A DNA stretch of 64,000 nt from Flavobacteriales bacterium (GTDB lineage Bacteria > Bacteroidota > Bacteroidia > Flavobacteriales_D > Crocinitomicaceae): contig CANGJM010000016.1 in assembly GCA_947454525.1 (NCBI GenBank), positions 1 to 64,000 of the forward strand. Reading direction: 5' to 3'. The first letter of the stretch is position 1. Each line of letters starts with the position of its first letter. The notes under the pieces are model-generated. The model was not told where the DNA came from. It saw only the letters and a program-made list of their open reading frames with translations, and made no database searches. Both the position numbers and the translations under genes were made by a program. Shown here in pieces: positions 3,188 to 14,509 of the stretch.

Positions 3188-4357
3188 TCAATATAAAAAC
3201 CCAAAATGCCATAGCGGAATGACATTAAGGTAGCCTTGTTCGATATTATCTTTGACGACAAACGCATTTGCTTGATTTGCCAGTTGCTTTTGCCCCTTAT
3301 TCTTGCCCCCTAATTCAAAATGATACGCTGCAATGGCGAAGTCAACAAAGTTAGAACTGGTAGGCTGATGTAAAACACGCGTTTGATTCAAAAAAAAGGT
3401 TTCGCGTTGGTTGCCAATATTGGACTGATCTGCAGTGATTACCGTGCTAAGGTTTGTATTATCTAGATAAACTTTATCGATCTTGCCCAAAGCACGAACC
3501 CCTTGTGTATCTGACCTTAATTGAGCGAGCATACCGGCTTCTTCCAAATAAAGTAAGTAGTCTGCAATGTTATTGCGGCTGATACCGAGTAAATCTGCCA
3601 TTTTACTCATGTTGGGCTTGAACGGAACACTTTGAGCAACTACGGCAAGTAATTGCTTGAGTTTGCGACCTGTTGACACATTCATTTGCGCATAAGTAGG
3701 AATATCAACTTCTAACGTTTGGTTGATGACCTGCCAAAGACGCATTTCGAAATCTGGCTCTTGTGCAAAAGGATAATACCCTTGCTTCAGGTACTGCCCA
3801 AAAGCCACCAAAGGCAATGGCAGTTTGCTGAAATCTGCTTGGTGCGACAAAAGCTGTTCAAGCGTATATACAGGGAATTCAAGACCTTTAAACACATACA
3901 AATACTCTCTAAACGATAAACCTTGCATGGTATACAAAACTGCTCTGCGGCTAAGGTCTGAGCTCCCTTTTTTCAGGTCTAATATGGAAGAACCTGTAAA
4001 GACTACCTGTAGTTGTGGGTGATAATCATAAATGAGTTTCAGTTCAGTAGCCCATTGCGGATACTTATGAATTTCATCTATAATGAGATGAGTCCCCCCA
4101 GATTGCACAAATTGTGCGGCTAGTTCGGTGAGACGTGTACTGGCAAAATAAAAATCTTCGGCCGTGACATATAACGACTTTTGTGGGTCGAGCTCGGTTT
4201 TGATGTATTGCAAGACCAAGGTTGTTTTACCCACACCACGAGGTCCCGTCAGGCCAATCAACCTATTTTTCCAATTGATATTGGCATAAGCATAGCGCTT
4301 GAAGCTGACATCAACTTGCGCTATTAAGCTTTTAGAATAGTGGAAAAGTTGTTCCAT
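3188..4357 (-). CDS. AAA ATPase with DUF4143-type C-terminus (copy 1)
   Basis: A 389-aa protein of the AAA_14/DUF4143 class common in Bacteroidota and archaea; the cellular role of this class is not settled. The Walker A motif is GPRGVGKTT (38-46). Walker B is LIIDE (91-95), followed by HKYPQW. The sensor-like stretch VVFTGSS follows, then a helix-turn-helix-like segment (MADLLGISRNNIADYL). The C-terminal region has FELGGKNKG, which resembles the degenerate PD-(D/E)XK nuclease-like end of the family. The start at ATG 4357 is supported by a TAnnTTTG -7 box at 4375-4382, giving a leader of about a dozen bases. It is a paralogue in architecture, not close in sequence, of the ATPase at 5395-6648. 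Context (between pgi and a cupin) says nothing about function. I suspect a selfish or defence-type module. Confidence 0.85.
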   Translation of the reverse strand: MEQLFHYSKSLIAQVDVSFKRYAYANINWKNRLIGLTGPRGVGKTTLVLQYIKTELDPQKSLYVTAEDFYFASTRLTELAAQFVQSGGTHLIIDEIHKYPQWATELKLIYDYHPQLQVVFTGSSILDLKKGSSDLSRRAVLYTMQGLSFREYLYVFKGLEFPVYTLEQLLSHQADFSKLPLPLVAFGQYLKQGYYPFAQEPDFEMRLWQVINQTLEVDIPTYAQMNVSTGRKLKQLLAVVAQSVPFKPNMSKMADLLGISRNNIADYLLYLEEAGMLAQLRSDTQGVRALGKIDKVYLDNTNLSTVITADQSNIGNQRETFFLNQTRVLHQPTSSNFVDFAIAAYHFELGGKNKGQKQLANQANAFVVKDNIEQGYLNVIPLWHFGFLY

Positions 4358-4359
4358 GG

Positions 4360-4540
4360 TTTGTACTTTAAGTACAAATATACATATATTGCACTATGAT
4401 AGTGCGTTTTTTAGTATTTTTTGCACTATTACAGTGCATTATAAGCATTTTACTTTACATATTGTAAGCATTTCACTTTACATATTATAAAGATTTTACT
4501 TTACATATTGTAAGTTTTTTACTTAAGTATGGTAAGATTT
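4360..4540 (-). promoter_or_regulatory. Promoter and repeat-array operator of AAA ATPase copy 1
   Basis: Reading on the minus strand, a -7 box TATATTTG lies at 4375-4382. A 19-bp palindrome (TTTGTACTTTAAGTACAAA, 4360-4378; 9-bp arms around one base) covers the box and the likely transcription start. Upstream are two shorter palindromes (GCACTATGATAGTGC at 4391-4405; GCACTATTACAGTGC at 4423-4437). Beyond them is a direct array whose units start at 4452, 4475, 4498 and 4521, exactly 23 bp apart (core ACTTTACATATTGTAAG, last copy diverged). This looks like multi-site binding of one regulator. The assignment is inference from position. Confidence 0.7.
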
Positions 4541-4555
4541 TTTATGTGTTTTATT

Positions 4556-4676
4556 TCCAACTCCGCTCTCTTGCTCCGCTCTCGCTCTGATTCCCGCTCT
4601 CTTTCTCCGCTCTCTTTCTCCGCTCTCTTTCTGCGCTATCCGCTCTGTTTCTCGCTCTGTTTCTCGCTCTGCTCAA
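4556..4676. repeat. CGCTCT-type low-complexity repeat after the cupin stop codon
   Basis: About ten imperfect copies of CGCTCT, often as the 12-mer TTTCTCGCTCTG, directly downstream of the cupin gene's TGA. In the gene's orientation it reads GAGCGAGAAACA repeated. The same repeat follows the stop of the oxidoreductase gene at 53007. An open frame on the plus strand across it is a low-complexity artefact. Confidence 0.75.
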
Positions 4677-5144
4677 TCATCGTCCGAAATCATCCTGCAC
4701 ACGCACAATGTCGTCTTCATTCGAAGGATTGCTCGCATCGGTGTGTTGCCAGATTTCAGCAATAATCGCATCAGCGTCGAGGCCTACCAAACGGTGACGC
4801 TCACCTTGTGCGAGTTTAATGGTTTGACCTTCCGTATAGTGCACGAGCTCGCCTTCTTGGTCGTTGTCTGAACGCACAATACCGACCGTTCCCTGCACCA
4901 CTTTCCAGATCTCTGCACGGCGGTTGTGGTACTGCCAAGATAGGCGCTGACCAGCAGCCACGACCAATAACTTTGGACTAAGCTTCCCGCCAATCGTCAA
5001 AGTATTCACATCAAGTCCGTCAAAAAAGGCATCCGAAAAAGCCTGGGCTTGTGTTTCGTCGATGACGTAGAACGCTCCCCATGGACGCGTGAGGTCTGAG
5101 GCGATCACAGTGAAGGATTGTAGGAGTTGTTGAGGGGTTTTCAT
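4677..5144 (-). CDS. Cupin, mannose-6-phosphate isomerase type II-like
   Basis: A 155-aa single cupin matching the C-terminal phosphomannose isomerase domain of ManC/AlgA-type proteins. It has TRPWGAFYVID near the start (the family usually has K/R-PWG). KLLVVAAGQRLSWQYHNRRAEIWKV follows in shorter blocks: the metal-binding pattern is H-x-x-R-x-E-x-W around QYHNRRAEIW, then QGERHRLVGL with a second His and NxxxxA-type end. It should convert fructose-6-P to mannose-6-P, the first committed step to GDP-mannose, which feeds Gmd/Fcl at 42-44 kb. The guanylyltransferase half is missing, so ManC and ManB activities must be encoded elsewhere. A WbuC-like or generic sugar-binding cupin is the alternative. 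Confidence 0.78.
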   Translation of the reverse strand: MKTPQQLLQSFTVIASDLTRPWGAFYVIDETQAQAFSDAFFDGLDVNTLTIGGKLSPKLLVVAAGQRLSWQYHNRRAEIWKVVQGTVGIVRSDNDQEGELVHYTEGQTIKLAQGERHRLVGLDADAIIAEIWQHTDASNPSNEDDIVRVQDDFGR

Positions 5145-5394
5145 AAAGGGGGGGATTGTTTTTGGTTAAAAGTTTTTAGTCCAGTGGATAATGTGCTAGT
5201 GTGCTAATGTGCTAATGTGCTAATTTGTTCCGGTTGGCTCCTCGCTCCGCCGCGGCGGAGCTCAGATAGGTGGCATCCGCCGTAGCTTTAGCGCAGGAGG
5301 ATTTTGTTTTATTGTTTTTCTACGCCAAGGCGAAGATTGGTTTTTCGGAATCTTCGTAGGCGCAGGGCATTCCCCTTCGTCTACGCGATAAAAT
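5145..5394. repeat. Spacer 2 with left array and hairpin modules
   Basis: A left array of GTGCTAAT units (about 5190-5226) leads to GGTTGGCTC, the palindrome CTCCGCCGCGGCGGAG, a GGCATCCGCCGTAGC module and an imperfect copy of the GTAGGCGCAGGGCATGCCC palindrome (about 5356-5384). There is no right-hand ATTAGCAC array; the AAA ATPase gene follows directly, so this gene appears to lie inside a longer spacer that closes at 8162. Confidence 0.7.
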
Positions 5395-6648
5395 TTATTT
5401 TCCTAATGCAGCTAATGAAATTACATTGATTCCGTCGGGTCTTCGGTAACTCATGCCAGTGCCGGTGATGACGTTCAGTGATTTTGGCAGACGCATTTTT
5501 TCCGTATCAATATTGGCTTCAAATTTTTTTAAGCTCTCTACCGCATCATCAATGTATCCGACGCCTAATTTAATTTCAAAAGCAGCATAATCGCCATTGC
5601 GTTTCTGAACAATTGCATCGACTTCATTCCCATATGAATCATTGTAATGATATACACTCGCATCATTGGAATTTGCATACACGTTTAATTCATGGATTGC
5701 CAAGGATTCAAAAAGAAACCCGGCATATTTAATATCGTTAAGTAAGGCGTCTTTATCCAAACCTAATGCGGCAACTGTCAGTGAGGTATCGCAGAGGTGT
5801 TTTTTACTTGTTTTTCGGAGTGAAGCTGCTGAACGAATATGAGGGTTGAATGCAGGTTGTTCATACAATAACATCAGTTTCGACAAGGCATCTAAGTAAT
5901 CAGAAAGGGTATTTCTTGATACCTCATCAGCTTCATTGAGCTTTATATCTTTTTCTAATGTCTTGTTATCGACAAGTGTAGACACATTTCGGGATAGCGA
6001 ACGTAAAATACCACGTACTTTTTGTGGGTTGCGTTTCACACCCGATACTTGACTCATGTCTACTTCGCAAACAAGATCAATGTAACCTCGATTCAAATTC
6101 AACGCTGTATCAATGTCCGCGTTAATCAGTGTGGGCCAACCACCAATACAAATTCTCTCCAGAATAAACTCAAGTGAAACAGCTGGCTCAAAAAAATCAT
6201 TGACAGCTCCAGTTAGTAAAGCCTCTAGGCTCACAGTTCCTTTTGAGAAGCCCAACTCTTGCCAAGACAATGTGTGCATTTGAATGACTGTAAAACGCCC
6301 AGCCCCGCTGTGTAATCTTACATTTTCGGGTGGATTTGCAGATCCTGTAAGGATAAACAAACCTTTTGATTGCTGAAAATCTACCTCATGCCTTACATAA
6401 TTCCATATTTCTGGCTGCTCTTGCCATTCATCAATTAAGCGTGGTTTTTTACCTTCAAGCAATAATTGAGGATTCGTTGCCATCATCACAGGTACTTGTG
6501 GATCTCTATCCAAACTTAATACACTCTGAGCGTATTGCTGAGCAGTAGCAGTTTTTCCGCATGATTTTGGACCTTTGATCAATACAGCACCCGAAGCTGC
6601 CATTTTCATCACTAATTCAGTCTCTATTATTCTCTTGATATAACTCAT
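5395..6648 (-). CDS. AAA ATPase with DUF4143/PD-(D/E)XK-like C-terminus (copy 2)
   Basis: A 417-aa protein of the AAA_14 plus DUF4143 class. Walker A is KGPKSCGKTA (25-34). Walker B is RLIDEW (about 70-75), followed by FILTGSANPP. The central domain is helical. The C-terminal domain carries NEVDAIVQKRNGDYAAFEIK, with an Asp followed by E-I-K as in PD-(D/E)XK nuclease-like folds. I chose ATG 6648 over an in-frame TTG at 6672, because the TTG overlaps the -7 box TAGATTTG (6670-6677). The gene is enclosed by repeat arrays (left array at 5190, next at 6969, right array at 8117), unlike copy 1. Function unknown. Together with copy 1 it is a candidate accessory or defence ATPase. Confidence 0.87.
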   Translation of the reverse strand: MSYIKRIIETELVMKMAASGAVLIKGPKSCGKTATAQQYAQSVLSLDRDPQVPVMMATNPQLLLEGKKPRLIDEWQEQPEIWNYVRHEVDFQQSKGLFILTGSANPPENVRLHSGAGRFTVIQMHTLSWQELGFSKGTVSLEALLTGAVNDFFEPAVSLEFILERICIGGWPTLINADIDTALNLNRGYIDLVCEVDMSQVSGVKRNPQKVRGILRSLSRNVSTLVDNKTLEKDIKLNEADEVSRNTLSDYLDALSKLMLLYEQPAFNPHIRSAASLRKTSKKHLCDTSLTVAALGLDKDALLNDIKYAGFLFESLAIHELNVYANSNDASVYHYNDSYGNEVDAIVQKRNGDYAAFEIKLGVGYIDDAVESLKKFEANIDTEKMRLPKSLNVITGTGMSYRRPDGINVISLAALGK

Positions 6649-6669
6649 TTTTGCCCCTTTAATTCTTGT

Positions 6670-6784
6670 CAAATCTACAAAATATTAATCATTGTGCAGA
6701 TTTAAGGTGTTTTGTTGTGCAAATTTAAGACTTTTTACTGTGCAGATTTAAGACTATTTACTGTGCAGATTTTAGATTTATATA
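6670..6784 (-). promoter_or_regulatory. Promoter and four 23-bp direct repeats of AAA ATPase copy 2
   Basis: On the minus strand a -7 box TAGATTTG lies at 6670-6677, 21 bp before the ATG. Directly upstream are four direct repeats with the shared core TGTGCAGATTTAAG, starting at 6693, 6716, 6739 and 6762 (exactly 23 bp apart). The first unit covers the -33 region. The number and period match the array of copy 1, but the sequence is different. Confidence 0.75.
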
Positions 6785-8162: not shown

Positions 8163-8894
8163 TTAAAAAAACTGTCCCAACTTGCTACTAACTTTGCGCA
8201 GCAACACTACCAACGGGAAAACCATCCCATTCTTCCGCAGCGCACGTATATCCTCGCGGGATTTCTTTACTAAGTTTTGCCATTTTGAACTCGCGCCGCC
8301 AATGCGCATGTGCGTGATGACCTGCGGCAGGTATGCGAATTGAAAGCGGTCGTTTAGAAAGCAACGCAACAGAAAATCGTAGTCTGCAGCAATGCGGAAA
8401 GTGGTATCGAATAGTCCGGCGTGGGCGTAGACTTCTTTTTTGAAAAAACAGGTCGGATGCGGGGGCATCCATCCCTTGCGCAATAACGAGGATCTGAACA
8501 CTTCGCTTTTCCAATGGCGGACCGTTCGACCCGTTTCTGCGGAAACGTACTTCAAGTCACCGTAGATTCCATCGACACCGGACTGCGTTAAACGGTTATG
8601 AATGCTTTCCAGTACGCGATCATCAGCGAAGAAATCATCCGCATGTAGGAATCCAAGAACGGTACCGTTGGAGCGCCCAATTCCTTTGTTCAAGGCATCG
8701 TAGATTCCCTGGTCCTTTTCGGACTCCCACTTCACACGTGGATCATTGATTTTTTGCAACCATTCCACTGTTCCGTCAGTCGATGCACCGTCTACGACAA
8801 TCCATTCCCAATTGGTAAAGGTTTGTGAAGACAAGGAGGACCATGCCAGTTTTAAGGTGGGGAGGGAGTTGTAAGTGGCGGTGATGATTGTCAA
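8163..8894 (-). CDS. Glycosyltransferase family 2
   Basis: A 243-aa GT-A fold enzyme that should add one sugar to a lipid-linked glycan at the cytoplasmic face of the inner membrane. It has the start strand MTIITATYNS, the nucleotide site VVDGASTDGT, the metal-binding FLHADD (DxD variant), and the acceptor-side PHPTCFFKKEVY and FRIAADYDFLLR typical of WcaA/WfgD-like GT2 proteins. The only start available is TTG at 8894, formed where the ATTAGCACATT array meets the gene; an ancestral ATG one base different is plausible. The TAA stop is the first bases of the array on the other side. It stands alone between two repeat spacers. Confidence 0.92.
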   Translation of the reverse strand: MTIITATYNSLPTLKLAWSSLSSQTFTNWEWIVVDGASTDGTVEWLQKINDPRVKWESEKDQGIYDALNKGIGRSNGTVLGFLHADDFFADDRVLESIHNRLTQSGVDGIYGDLKYVSAETGRTVRHWKSEVFRSSLLRKGWMPPHPTCFFKKEVYAHAGLFDTTFRIAADYDFLLRCFLNDRFQFAYLPQVITHMRIGGASSKWQNLVKKSREDIRALRKNGMVFPLVVLLRKVSSKLGQFF

Positions 8895-9441
8895 TGTGCT
8901 AATTTGCTAATTTGCAAATGTGCTAATGTGCTAATGTGCTAATGGGTTGCTGTTGGCTCCTCGCTTTGCTCGGATATGTGATATCCGCTGTAGCTTTAGC
9001 GTAGGAGGATTTTTTTGCCACGAATTACGTGAATTTTAACGAATATTTTTGTTTGGTTGTATTTTCGTTCTCTGCTCTCGCTCTCGCTCTGAATTCAACC
9101 CCTTCAGGGTTGTGGATAATCGTGAATGCGTTTTTTGTATGGAGGTTTGACCCCTTCAGGGTCATGACTCACAGTGCTCAGGGCCTGTATTTATAATAAA
9201 TCTTGTTCCGTGTTTAATCTATGCTGTTAACTAAAAACGTTTAGCGGAGCGAACAAATCATTAGCACATTGGCAGTCCGCCGCGGCGGAGGCACACTAGC
9301 ACATTGAATTAGTGCTCAGTGCCGGTATCTATACTAAAAATTGTTCCGTGTTTAATCTATGCTGTTAACTAAAAACGTTAAGCTCCGCCGCGGCGGAGCG
9401 AACAAATCATTAGCACATTGGCACACTAGCACATTGGCACA
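8895..9441. repeat. Spacer 4 with duplicated right end
   Basis: Left array (8895-8944), left-end module, CACGAATTACG module, CGCTCT stretch, paired-hairpin element (AACCCCTTCAGGGTT at 9097, GACCCCTTCAGGGTC at 9149). It then holds two successive copies of the right end, each with a CCGCGG palindrome, GCGAACAAATC and an ATTAGCAC array (9258-9306 and 9405-9441). The right end thus looks tandemly duplicated. No gene seen. Confidence 0.78.
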
Positions 9442-14252: not shown

Positions 14253-14509
14253 GATGCTAATGTGCTAGTATGCTAGTGTGCTAATGTGCTAATGTGCTAA
14301 TGTGCTAATGGGTTGCTGTTGGCTCTTCGCTTTGCTCAGATAAGTGGCATCCGCCGTAGCTTTAGCGTAGGAGGATTTTTTTTTGCCACTAATTCCGCGA
14401 ATTATCACGAATTTTTTTGTGGGTTGTTTTAGTAATTAGAAGCGCAGAGTTACTTGGAGGATAAGGAGTTGCGCAGAGTATTTTATGTTATGGTTGTTAT
14501 TGTAGTTGT
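14253..14509. repeat. Spacer 7, left part only
   Basis: Long left array of GTGCTAAT units (14253-14312), left-end module, GGCATCCGCCGTAGC module, CGCGAATTATCACGAAT module and an AGCGCAGAGTTACTT...GTTGCGCAGAG module, then the 3' end of the DUF4062 gene. There is no closing ATTAGCAC array until 16606, so that gene sits inside the spacer. Confidence 0.72.

What the first reader, a model, noticed from the sequence alone, without database searches (positions are those of the whole stretch)
4360..6784. Both AAA/DUF4143 genes have four 23-bp direct repeats upstream of the -7 box
Copy 1 has units at 4452, 4475, 4498 and 4521; copy 2 at 6693, 6716, 6739 and 6762. The period (23) and number (4) agree exactly, but the repeat sequences differ, as do the proteins. 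Both arrays lie directly upstream of a TAnnTTTG box. This suggests each ATPase or a partner recognises its own private repeat, as restriction-modification controllers or self-recognition systems do. The candidate is a DUF4143 ATPase that reads a cognate repeat.
Basis: partly seen in the sequence, partly recalled or inferred. Interest (0 to 1): 0.75.

Follow-up and report, generated by a model that had tools for sequence, protein, structure and literature searches.

The report
Private promoter repeats of defence-candidate ATPases
A very large, little-tested family of candidate anti-virus genes in bacteria and archaea often carries, in front of the gene, a short row of evenly spaced repeats whose spelling differs from gene to gene, and the row of one subfamily also turns up in viruses that lack the gene, which suggests how such genes may control themselves and perhaps sense invaders.

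Summary
The two 23-bp arrays are real (both p<=1/201 by shuffling) and are one case of a family-wide feature. The genes belong to the AAA_14/DUF4143 family, which PADLOC lists as phage-defence candidate PDC-S01. Of 297 non-redundant family genes (Bacteroidota, other bacterial phyla, methanogens, viral contigs) 176 have a significant direct-repeat array in the 220 bp upstream, 161 of them with period 22, 23, 32 or 33; of 298 control genes, 9 and 1. Some other members have inverted repeats. In gene B's subfamily the 23-bp period is kept down to about 39% protein identity while the unit sequence changes. Most likely the arrays are operators of the gene's own product (inferred; no binding was tested). 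One correction: array A has the unit of gene B's subfamily; gene A's own operator is probably two palindromes 32 bp apart. Unexpectedly, the unit of a third family gene of this genome occurs as a two-unit, 33-bp-spaced array in phage contigs without the gene (0 of 50 records), while in 100 related genomes it lies almost only at that gene.

The parts
5395..6648 (-). Gene B: AAA_14 ATPase + winged helix + DUF4143/PD-(D/E)XK protein, 417 aa (ATG at 6648; a TTG start at 6672 is also open)
   Evidence: PADLOC PDC-S01 202 bits; AlphaFold2 model pLDDT 92.7
6670..6677 (-). TAGATTTG, Bacteroidota-type -7 box of gene B
   Evidence: sequence; the box type is recalled
6691..6779 (-). 23-bp direct-repeat array of gene B, unit CTTAAATYTGCACARTAAAARRT, about 4 copies; proposed operator
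   Evidence: same unit type in homologues of 71-78% identity
3188..4357 (-). Gene A: AAA_14 + weak DUF4143 match, 389 aa
   Evidence: PADLOC PDC-S01 94 bits
4375..4382 (-). TATATTTG, Bacteroidota-type -7 box of gene A
   Evidence: sequence; the box type is recalled
4390..4405 (.). Palindrome TGCACTATGATAGTGC, unit 1 of the 32-bp-spaced pair; likely the cognate operator of gene A
   Evidence: the pair is shared by A-type relatives L093 and L096
4422..4438 (.). Palindrome TGCACTATTACAGTGCA, unit 2, 32 bp from unit 1
4438..4544 (-). 23-bp direct-repeat array upstream of gene A, unit CTTACAATATGTAAAGTAAAATG, about 4 copies; unit of gene B's subfamily, type 'TGTAAA'
   Evidence: all 3 exact matches to its core in the genome lie in this array

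Best explanation
The arrays are operators of AAA_14/DUF4143 (PDC-S01) genes. The encoded ATPase (P-loop module, winged helix, C-terminal PD-(D/E)XK nuclease-like domain) binds the phased units in its own promoter, on nearly one face of the DNA (spacing of 2 or 3 helical turns plus 1-2 bp), occludes RNA polymerase and so keeps its own synthesis low. Each lineage of ATPase has its own unit sequence, so that the several paralogues of one genome do not cross-regulate. Shown by computation: existence, fixed spacing, position at the promoter, occurrence through the family, privacy of the sequences, lack of a conserved linked partner. In the window, gene B with the array at 6691-6779 is a complete case; array A is a displaced array of B's subfamily, or a site for a B-type protein, next to gene A's own palindromic operator.
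For: Own genome: 5 of 7 family genes have clear arrays of different sequence (significant for L001, L002, L003, L005, L007). 40 genomes, own included: 54 of 96 genes at p<=1/201, 49 of the 54 with period 22, 23, 32 or 33. Rest of the phylum: 29 of 70, 26 of the 29 at these periods. B subfamily across phyla: 66 of 86, 62 of the 66 at exactly 23. Methanogens: 22 of 28, 21 of the 22 at exactly 23. Non-redundant total: 176 of 297, 161 at these periods; control 9 and 1 of 298. Neighbour-gene control in the B loci: 16 of 187 with some array, of these 4 at 32-33, 1 at 22 and 0 at 23. Inverted repeats at p<=1/201 in 32 of 96 array-less family genes against 2 of 298 controls. Privacy: 3 of 82 paralogue-array pairs in 14 genomes share a 10-mer; array A's core has exact matches only in its own array (3 of 3). 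Unit similarity rises with protein identity: 0.35-0.37 at 35-50%, 0.46 at 60-70%, 0.52 at 70-80%. Promoter: of 95 arrays treated as Bacteroidota, 63 have a TAnnTTTG box within 160 nt, 25 inside the array and 32 within 30 bp downstream; in three spirochaete genes the last unit holds a -35-like element 17-18 bp from a TATAAT-like box (L217, L220, L222). No conserved neighbour in the flanks. Fold: winged helix 208-264 with helix 245-257; best matches archaeal ATPases 2qen and 2fna, then STAND/NLR modules; DNA-bound Cdc6/Orc1 follows 2fna in Foldseek. Precedent: RptR represses a defence island by binding direct repeats in its promoter (PMC12255303; abstract and passages).
Against: No binding or expression data. 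Column-level covariation between protein and unit does not localise to the recognition helix, and regional correlations differ little. The winged helix of STAND-like ATPases often does not bind DNA (recalled). 121 of 297 family genes have no significant array. TAnnTTTG boxes also occur in 61 of 135 control genes, so their presence is weak evidence; in 4 of the 63 boxed cases the box lies upstream of the array, and in the 42 other arrays tested the best -35 was inside the array in only 23. Gene A carries an array of another subfamily. Orphan arrays exist in phages and in one related genome.
Confidence: 0.68

Rival explanations
1. The arrays are both operator and invader gauge or target. The ATPase-nuclease also recognises the same unit in phage genomes; incoming phage DNA either titrates the repressor off its own promoter (derepressing the defence gene) or is attacked at the array.
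For: 0 of 120 loci have a family homologue and 0 of 50 whole records a DUF4143 match, 46 of the 50 being L005-type. Each of these 46 records has one such place, with one match or with two that are 33 bp apart. Of 74 phage loci fetched by a neighbouring protein, 33 have a significant period-33 array. In 22 non-redundant loci the units are 94-96% and the spacer 86% conserved, the flanks 50% and 69%. Three contigs annotated carry tailed-phage genes; the nearest isolates, at 35% portal identity, infect a marine flavobacterium. In one phage the array precedes a TATCTTTG box and a gene block that looks early. In 100 related genomes the motif is in 6: four at the family gene, one orphan, one single imperfect match.
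Against: Strong conservation in phages is odd for a target of attack and fits a phage benefit better. The loci were chosen for at most 9 mismatches in the 38 unit positions, so unit conservation is partly by construction (the spacer was not chosen on). Only this unit was found in quantity: triple TGCACAAT 0, spirochaete pair 0, GGTGAAT palindrome 0 hits; TGTAAAGTAAA pair clear in one phage contig (L365). No isolate phage with an array was found.
Confidence: 0.3
2. Phage decoy or hijacking: phages carry the array to titrate or borrow the host ATPase for their own early-promoter control, so the phage arrays are counter-defence.
For: Array conservation above the flanks (with the caveat above), different flanking genes and both orientations relative to them, position before a promoter-like box in one phage.
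Against: Only one place with one or two matches per record, which is little titration before replication. No data on whether hosts of these phages carry the gene.
Confidence: 0.2
3. A separate host transcription factor reads these arrays and the ATPase is only a regulated gene.
For: Many operators are read by unlinked factors (general knowledge).
Against: Each gene has a different unit, and a unit is rare elsewhere in the genome, so every paralogue would need its own dedicated unlinked factor; no conserved neighbour; the arrays accompany the gene across phyla and into archaea.
Confidence: 0.12
4. Chance, or tandem repeats expanding without function.
For: The genome is rich in intergenic octamer repeats.
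Against: Shuffle tests and controls; fixed periods kept over deep divergence while the sequence changes.
Confidence: 0.02

Closest known systems
PDC-S01 (PADLOC phage-defence candidate; AAA_14 + DUF4143)
   Same: The window's proteins match its models: ATPase domain with PD-(D/E)XK domain. PMC12988326 calls it the fourth most common defence across prokaryotes, with validation pending for most such candidates (passages).
   Different: The passages that I read describe no promoter repeats. Defence by these proteins is not shown there or here.
RptR repressor of a restriction-modification defence island (PMC12255303)
   Same: Represses its own defence promoter by binding a series of direct repeats that overlap the core promoter (abstract and passages).
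   Different: RptR is a small dedicated repressor with one conserved 6-bp palindrome in 9-bp repeats. Here the presumed reader is the ATPase-nuclease itself, units are 22-23 or 32-33 bp apart, and the sequence is private to each lineage.
Controller (C) proteins of restriction-modification systems
   Same: Autoregulation of a defence gene at its own promoter (recalled).
   Different: C proteins are small helix-turn-helix dimers with no ATPase or nuclease domain (recalled); Pfam lists only AAA and DUF4143 matches for genes A and B.
Iterons of plasmid replication initiators and archaeal Cdc6/Orc1 origin boxes
   Same: Phased direct repeats read by a winged-helix protein (recalled); Cdc6/Orc1 is also AAA+ and on DNA is among the nearest Foldseek matches.
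   Different: Here the repeats lie at the gene's own promoter; a link to replication was not looked for systematically.
STAND/NLR ATPases and SSO1545-type archaeal ATPases
   Same: Best structural matches, 2qen Z 15.9 and 2fna Z 14.4, then plant NLR and CED-4 modules at Z 11-12.5. An NLR, Rx1, binds DNA (PMC4599002; abstract and passages).
   Different: C-terminal nuclease-like domain and a gene-specific promoter array.

Membership tests
AAA_14 / DUF4143 (Pfam PF13173, PF13635) | Match above both Pfam cut-offs | tested here: met
   Gene B: AAA_14 45.7 and DUF4143 114.8 bits, cut-offs 27 and 28.1. Gene A: AAA_14 107.9 bits, but DUF4143 only 23.8 bits, below cut-off, so met for B only.
PDC-S01 | Match to PADLOC PDC-S01 models over most of the protein | tested here: met
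   Gene B 202 bits, residues 1-382 against model 8-388 of 422; gene A 94 bits, residues 30-301, partial; L005 624 and L001 542 bits. PADLOC's own thresholds were not applied.
PDC-S01 | Antiphage activity | not testable with these tools
   Needs an infection assay.
PD-(D/E)XK nucleases | D...E-x-K active-site residues | tested here: met
   K360 invariant and D344, E358 at least 90% conserved over 65 sequences; all three invariant in 7. The motif is recalled; activity not tested.
Own-gene operator array | Periodic repeats at the gene's own promoter above control | tested here: met
Own-gene operator array | The encoded protein binds the array | not testable with these tools
   Only an indirect covariation test; column level inconclusive.
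RptR-type regulators | Small dedicated repressor gene beside a restriction-modification system | tested here: not met
   No conserved neighbour in the flanks (up to 2.5 kb) of 86 B-family loci; the largest neighbour family is in 5 loci.
STAND NTPases | P-loop, helical and winged-helix arrangement | tested here: met
   VIA-align Z 11-12.5 to NLR and CED-4 modules, 2qen and 2fna above; shared fold only.

The most novel reading that the evidence does not exclude
PDC-S01 genes are self-addressed immune switches: each ATPase-nuclease reads a private phased array, represses itself through the copy in its own promoter, and is switched on, or directed to its target, by the same array in an invading phage genome, so the promoter is a built-in gauge of phage DNA. 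Some phages related to flavobacterial phages conserve such arrays, in one case before an early-looking promoter.
Probability: 0.25. Interest if true: 0.95.

Novelty: new variant of a known kind. Interest (0 to 1): 0.86.

Why it matters
PDC-S01 is reported as one of the commonest candidate defence genes in prokaryotes (29,494 bacterial and 9,986 archaeal copies in PMC12988326, passages read), with experimental validation pending for most such candidates. A gene-specific operator would be a concrete handle on how these genes are controlled, would make their DNA specificity predictable from sequence, and links one subfamily to a definite set of phages. Keeping a 23-bp array through deep protein divergence and on both sides of the bacteria-archaea divide (gene transfer is possible) while the sequence changes is unusual, and offers a large natural data set for protein-DNA recognition.

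Tried and rejected
Chance or low-complexity origin: rejected by shuffles and two control sets. A conserved partner regulator: none found in the flanks. Locating the specificity residues: seven residues separate the TGCACA from the TGTAAA group (D11E, E80K, D125R, C194A, N246P, Y262E, Y354W), one at the start of the recognition helix, but the column scan over 71 proteins does not favour that helix; left open. A solved relative of gene B by sequence: none at E<=0.01. A lost B-type gene beside array A: tblastn of two TGTAAA-type proteins against the window found only gene B itself and weak hits. A second copy of B's unit elsewhere: the loose pattern gave 268 hits against 192 for the control, with no clear second array among the listed places. 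Thermus TT_RS11170 (taken to be TT_P0211): no array; an inverted repeat read by eye just before the start. Scans of viral contigs for other units: triple TGCACAAT 0, spirochaete pair 0, GGTGAAT palindrome 0. Of the three TGTAAAGTAAA-pair hits, L363 and L364 share one AT-rich place and look like chance, L365 is clear; of the five TTGCAAA hits, L366 and L370 share one place with no clean array, L367-L369 hold clear period-23 arrays without a family homologue. Isolate phages with these arrays: only weak partial matches. Literature on repeats in front of these genes: ten searches listed none; the library lacks most subscription papers and preprints.

Rows dropped: 6 domain fragments of 102 matches; of the phylum search (capped list) 70 matches were taken; 1 of 29 archaeal loci lacked upstream DNA; 13 near-identical upstreams of 310 were removed before the totals; 6 of 80 phage loci lacked downstream DNA. 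Loci from searches are the best-scoring matches, not a random draw.
Full report
What was checked. The window holds two genes of the AAA_14/DUF4143 family on the minus strand: A (3188-4357) and B (5395-6648). The 23-bp arrays are at the stated places. Array B ends 13 bp before a TAGATTTG box. Array A ends 55 bp before its TATATTTG box, and two 16-17-bp palindromes 32 bp apart lie between. Both arrays beat 200 dinucleotide shuffles.

The whole genome. Seven family genes were found. Five have clear upstream arrays, all of different sequence: two of period 23 (A, B), three of period 32-33 (L001, L002, L005), all five significant. L005 has five units of TTTTACCCTTGTTTTGTTACAT, the last running into its TACATTTG box.

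Relatives and controls. In 40 genomes (own included) 96 genes with upstream DNA were tested (6 domain fragments of 102 matches left out); 54 have an array at p<=1/201, and 49 of the 54 have period 22, 23, 32 or 33. Of 298 other genes from 400 kb of the own genome, 9 have an array of any kind at p<=1/201, none at 22-23, one at 32. In the rest of the phylum 29 of 70 genes have arrays, 26 at these periods. In 16 genomes behind loci of other phyla, 17 of 30 have arrays, but 7 of the 30 repeat genes of the B set. All totals, duplicates removed: 176 of 297 family genes, 161 at the four periods, against 9 and 1 of 298 controls. Of 96 family genes without an array, 32 have an inverted repeat at p<=1/201 within 110 bp upstream (25 of 100 with an array do too), against 2 of 298 controls and 0 of 86 in the B subfamily.

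Gene B's subfamily across phyla. Eighty named genome loci and six viral contigs were fetched. 66 of 86 have an array, 62 at exactly 23 bp. Of 187 neighbouring genes in the same loci 16 have a significant periodicity, many of them low-period repeats, 4 at 32-33, one at 22, none at 23. Homologues of 71-78% identity have units like B's (TTAAATnTGCACAAT), those of about 56-63% have AATnTGTAAAGTAAAA-like units, and more distant ones have other units. Mean unit similarity is 0.31 below 35% protein identity (4 pairs), 0.35-0.37 at 35-50%, 0.39 at 50-60%, 0.46 at 60-70% and 0.52 above 70%. So spacing is kept while the sequence drifts. In methanogens (60 genomes of the phylum of Methanobrevibacter curvatus, 41 with a match) 22 of 28 genes tested have arrays, 21 at exactly 23 bp; gene transfer between the domains is possible.

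Array A is of B's kind. Its unit is closest to the TGTAAA group (mean similarity 0.54; 0.44 to B's own group, 0.37 to the rest). Of 8 A-type relatives, L093 and L096 have the same palindrome pair, L031, L092 and L095 have significant 32-33-bp repeats of other sequence, and L090, L091 and L094 have none that is significant. Only L093 keeps a remnant of the 23-bp array. I therefore read the palindromes as A's operator and the 23-bp array as a displaced array of the B subfamily, or as a site for a B-type protein in trans.

The protein. The AlphaFold2 model of B (65 sequences, mean pLDDT 92.7) shows an ATPase module, a winged helix at about 208-264 and a C-terminal nuclease-like domain. Its closest solved structures are archaeal ATPases 2qen and 2fna and STAND modules of plant NLRs and CED-4; DNA-bound Cdc6/Orc1 follows 2fna in Foldseek. 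K360 is invariant and D344 and E358 are nearly so. PADLOC assigns PDC-S01, which PMC12988326 describes as the fourth most common defence across prokaryotes, with ATPase and PD-(D/E)XK domains (passages only). In Thermus thermophilus RNA of one AAA_14/DUF4143 gene rose 6.6-fold with a plasmid, only in the strain with Argonaute (PMC4406477, one section read); the gene that I take to be this one has no array, so this says little. No conserved neighbour was found in the flanks, so the encoded ATPase is the best candidate reader. Attempts to place the specificity in the recognition helix were inconclusive.

Promoter geometry. Of 95 arrays treated as Bacteroidota (two, L190 and L206, come from records with other names) 63 have a TAnnTTTG box within 160 nt upstream of the gene; 25 boxes lie inside the array, 32 within 30 bp downstream of it, 4 upstream of it and 2 elsewhere. 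Boxes also occur in 61 of 135 control genes with at least 80 nt of non-coding upstream DNA, so presence alone is weak evidence. In three spirochaete genes the last unit supplies a -35-like element with a TATAAT-like box 17-18 bp on; over all 42 other arrays the best -35 falls inside the array in 23. In L201 and L203 the array lies between a promoter-like box and the gene (by eye). Operators on either side of the box fit a repressor better than an activator.

Orphan arrays in phages. The 46 records carry one such place each. A set fetched by a metallophosphoesterase protein, taken from one array-bearing contig, has a significant period-33 array in 33 of 74 loci. In 22 non-redundant loci with the array the units are 94-96%, the spacer 86% and the flanks 50% and 69% conserved; the loci had been chosen for at most 9 mismatches in the 38 unit positions, so only the spacer is an unbiased figure. 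Three contigs annotated carry tailed-phage genes: primase/helicase-like in all three, portal and endolysin in two. The portal protein of one is nearest (35% identity) to phages P12024S and P12024L of a marine flavobacterium. In L596 the array sits between the phosphoesterase gene and a TATCTTTG box before a block with small genes and a helicase-like gene. In 100 related genomes (own included) the unit, with up to one mismatch, is found in six: at the L005-type gene in four, as an orphan two-unit array in one (L496), as a single imperfect match in one. One phage contig (L365) has two TGTAAA-type units just before a short gene next to the large terminase gene. These copies can be targets, titrating sites or decoys; nothing here separates these.

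Verdict. Autorepression through private phased operators is the best-supported reading; a role in sensing phage DNA is the bold reading that the phage arrays leave open.

Noticed in passing
L115:2891-4423 (own genome, contig C10) and L333-L340: A Fic-domain gene, PADLOC PDC-S24 (629 bits), and some homologues also have repeated motifs upstream: AAGTGTTTTTC at period 30 in the own genome (p=0.005), TGCGCTCA about four times in L336-L338 (period 41, p=0.005), TTTGGAACC-like motifs about six times in L339 (p=0.025); L335 shows none (p=0.63) (motif counts by eye). A second single-gene defence candidate may use private promoter repeats.
   Followed up: partly
   Followed up: partly
L367, L368 and L369: Viral contigs with TTGCAAA-type period-23 arrays of three or more units and no family homologue; L367 and L368 (contigs of 146 and 381 kb) share the same stretch.
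   Followed up: partly
window 4677-5144: A MannoseP_isomer-like cupin gene precedes gene A; the same coding end lies upstream of A-type relatives L031, L093 and L094 (by eye), so the gene order is old, while the 23-bp array is in L007 and, as a remnant, L093 only.
   Followed up: partly
window, many places (e.g. 933-969, 5189-5224, 8893-8944, 14255-14310): The octamer TGCTAATG/CATTAGCA recurs as short tandem arrays at many places, several between the open frames.
   Followed up: no
L201 and L203: Bacteroidota MAG loci where the B-type array lies downstream of a promoter-like TAnnTTTG box, that is in the presumed 5' UTR (by eye; L203's array itself is not significant there).
   Followed up: no
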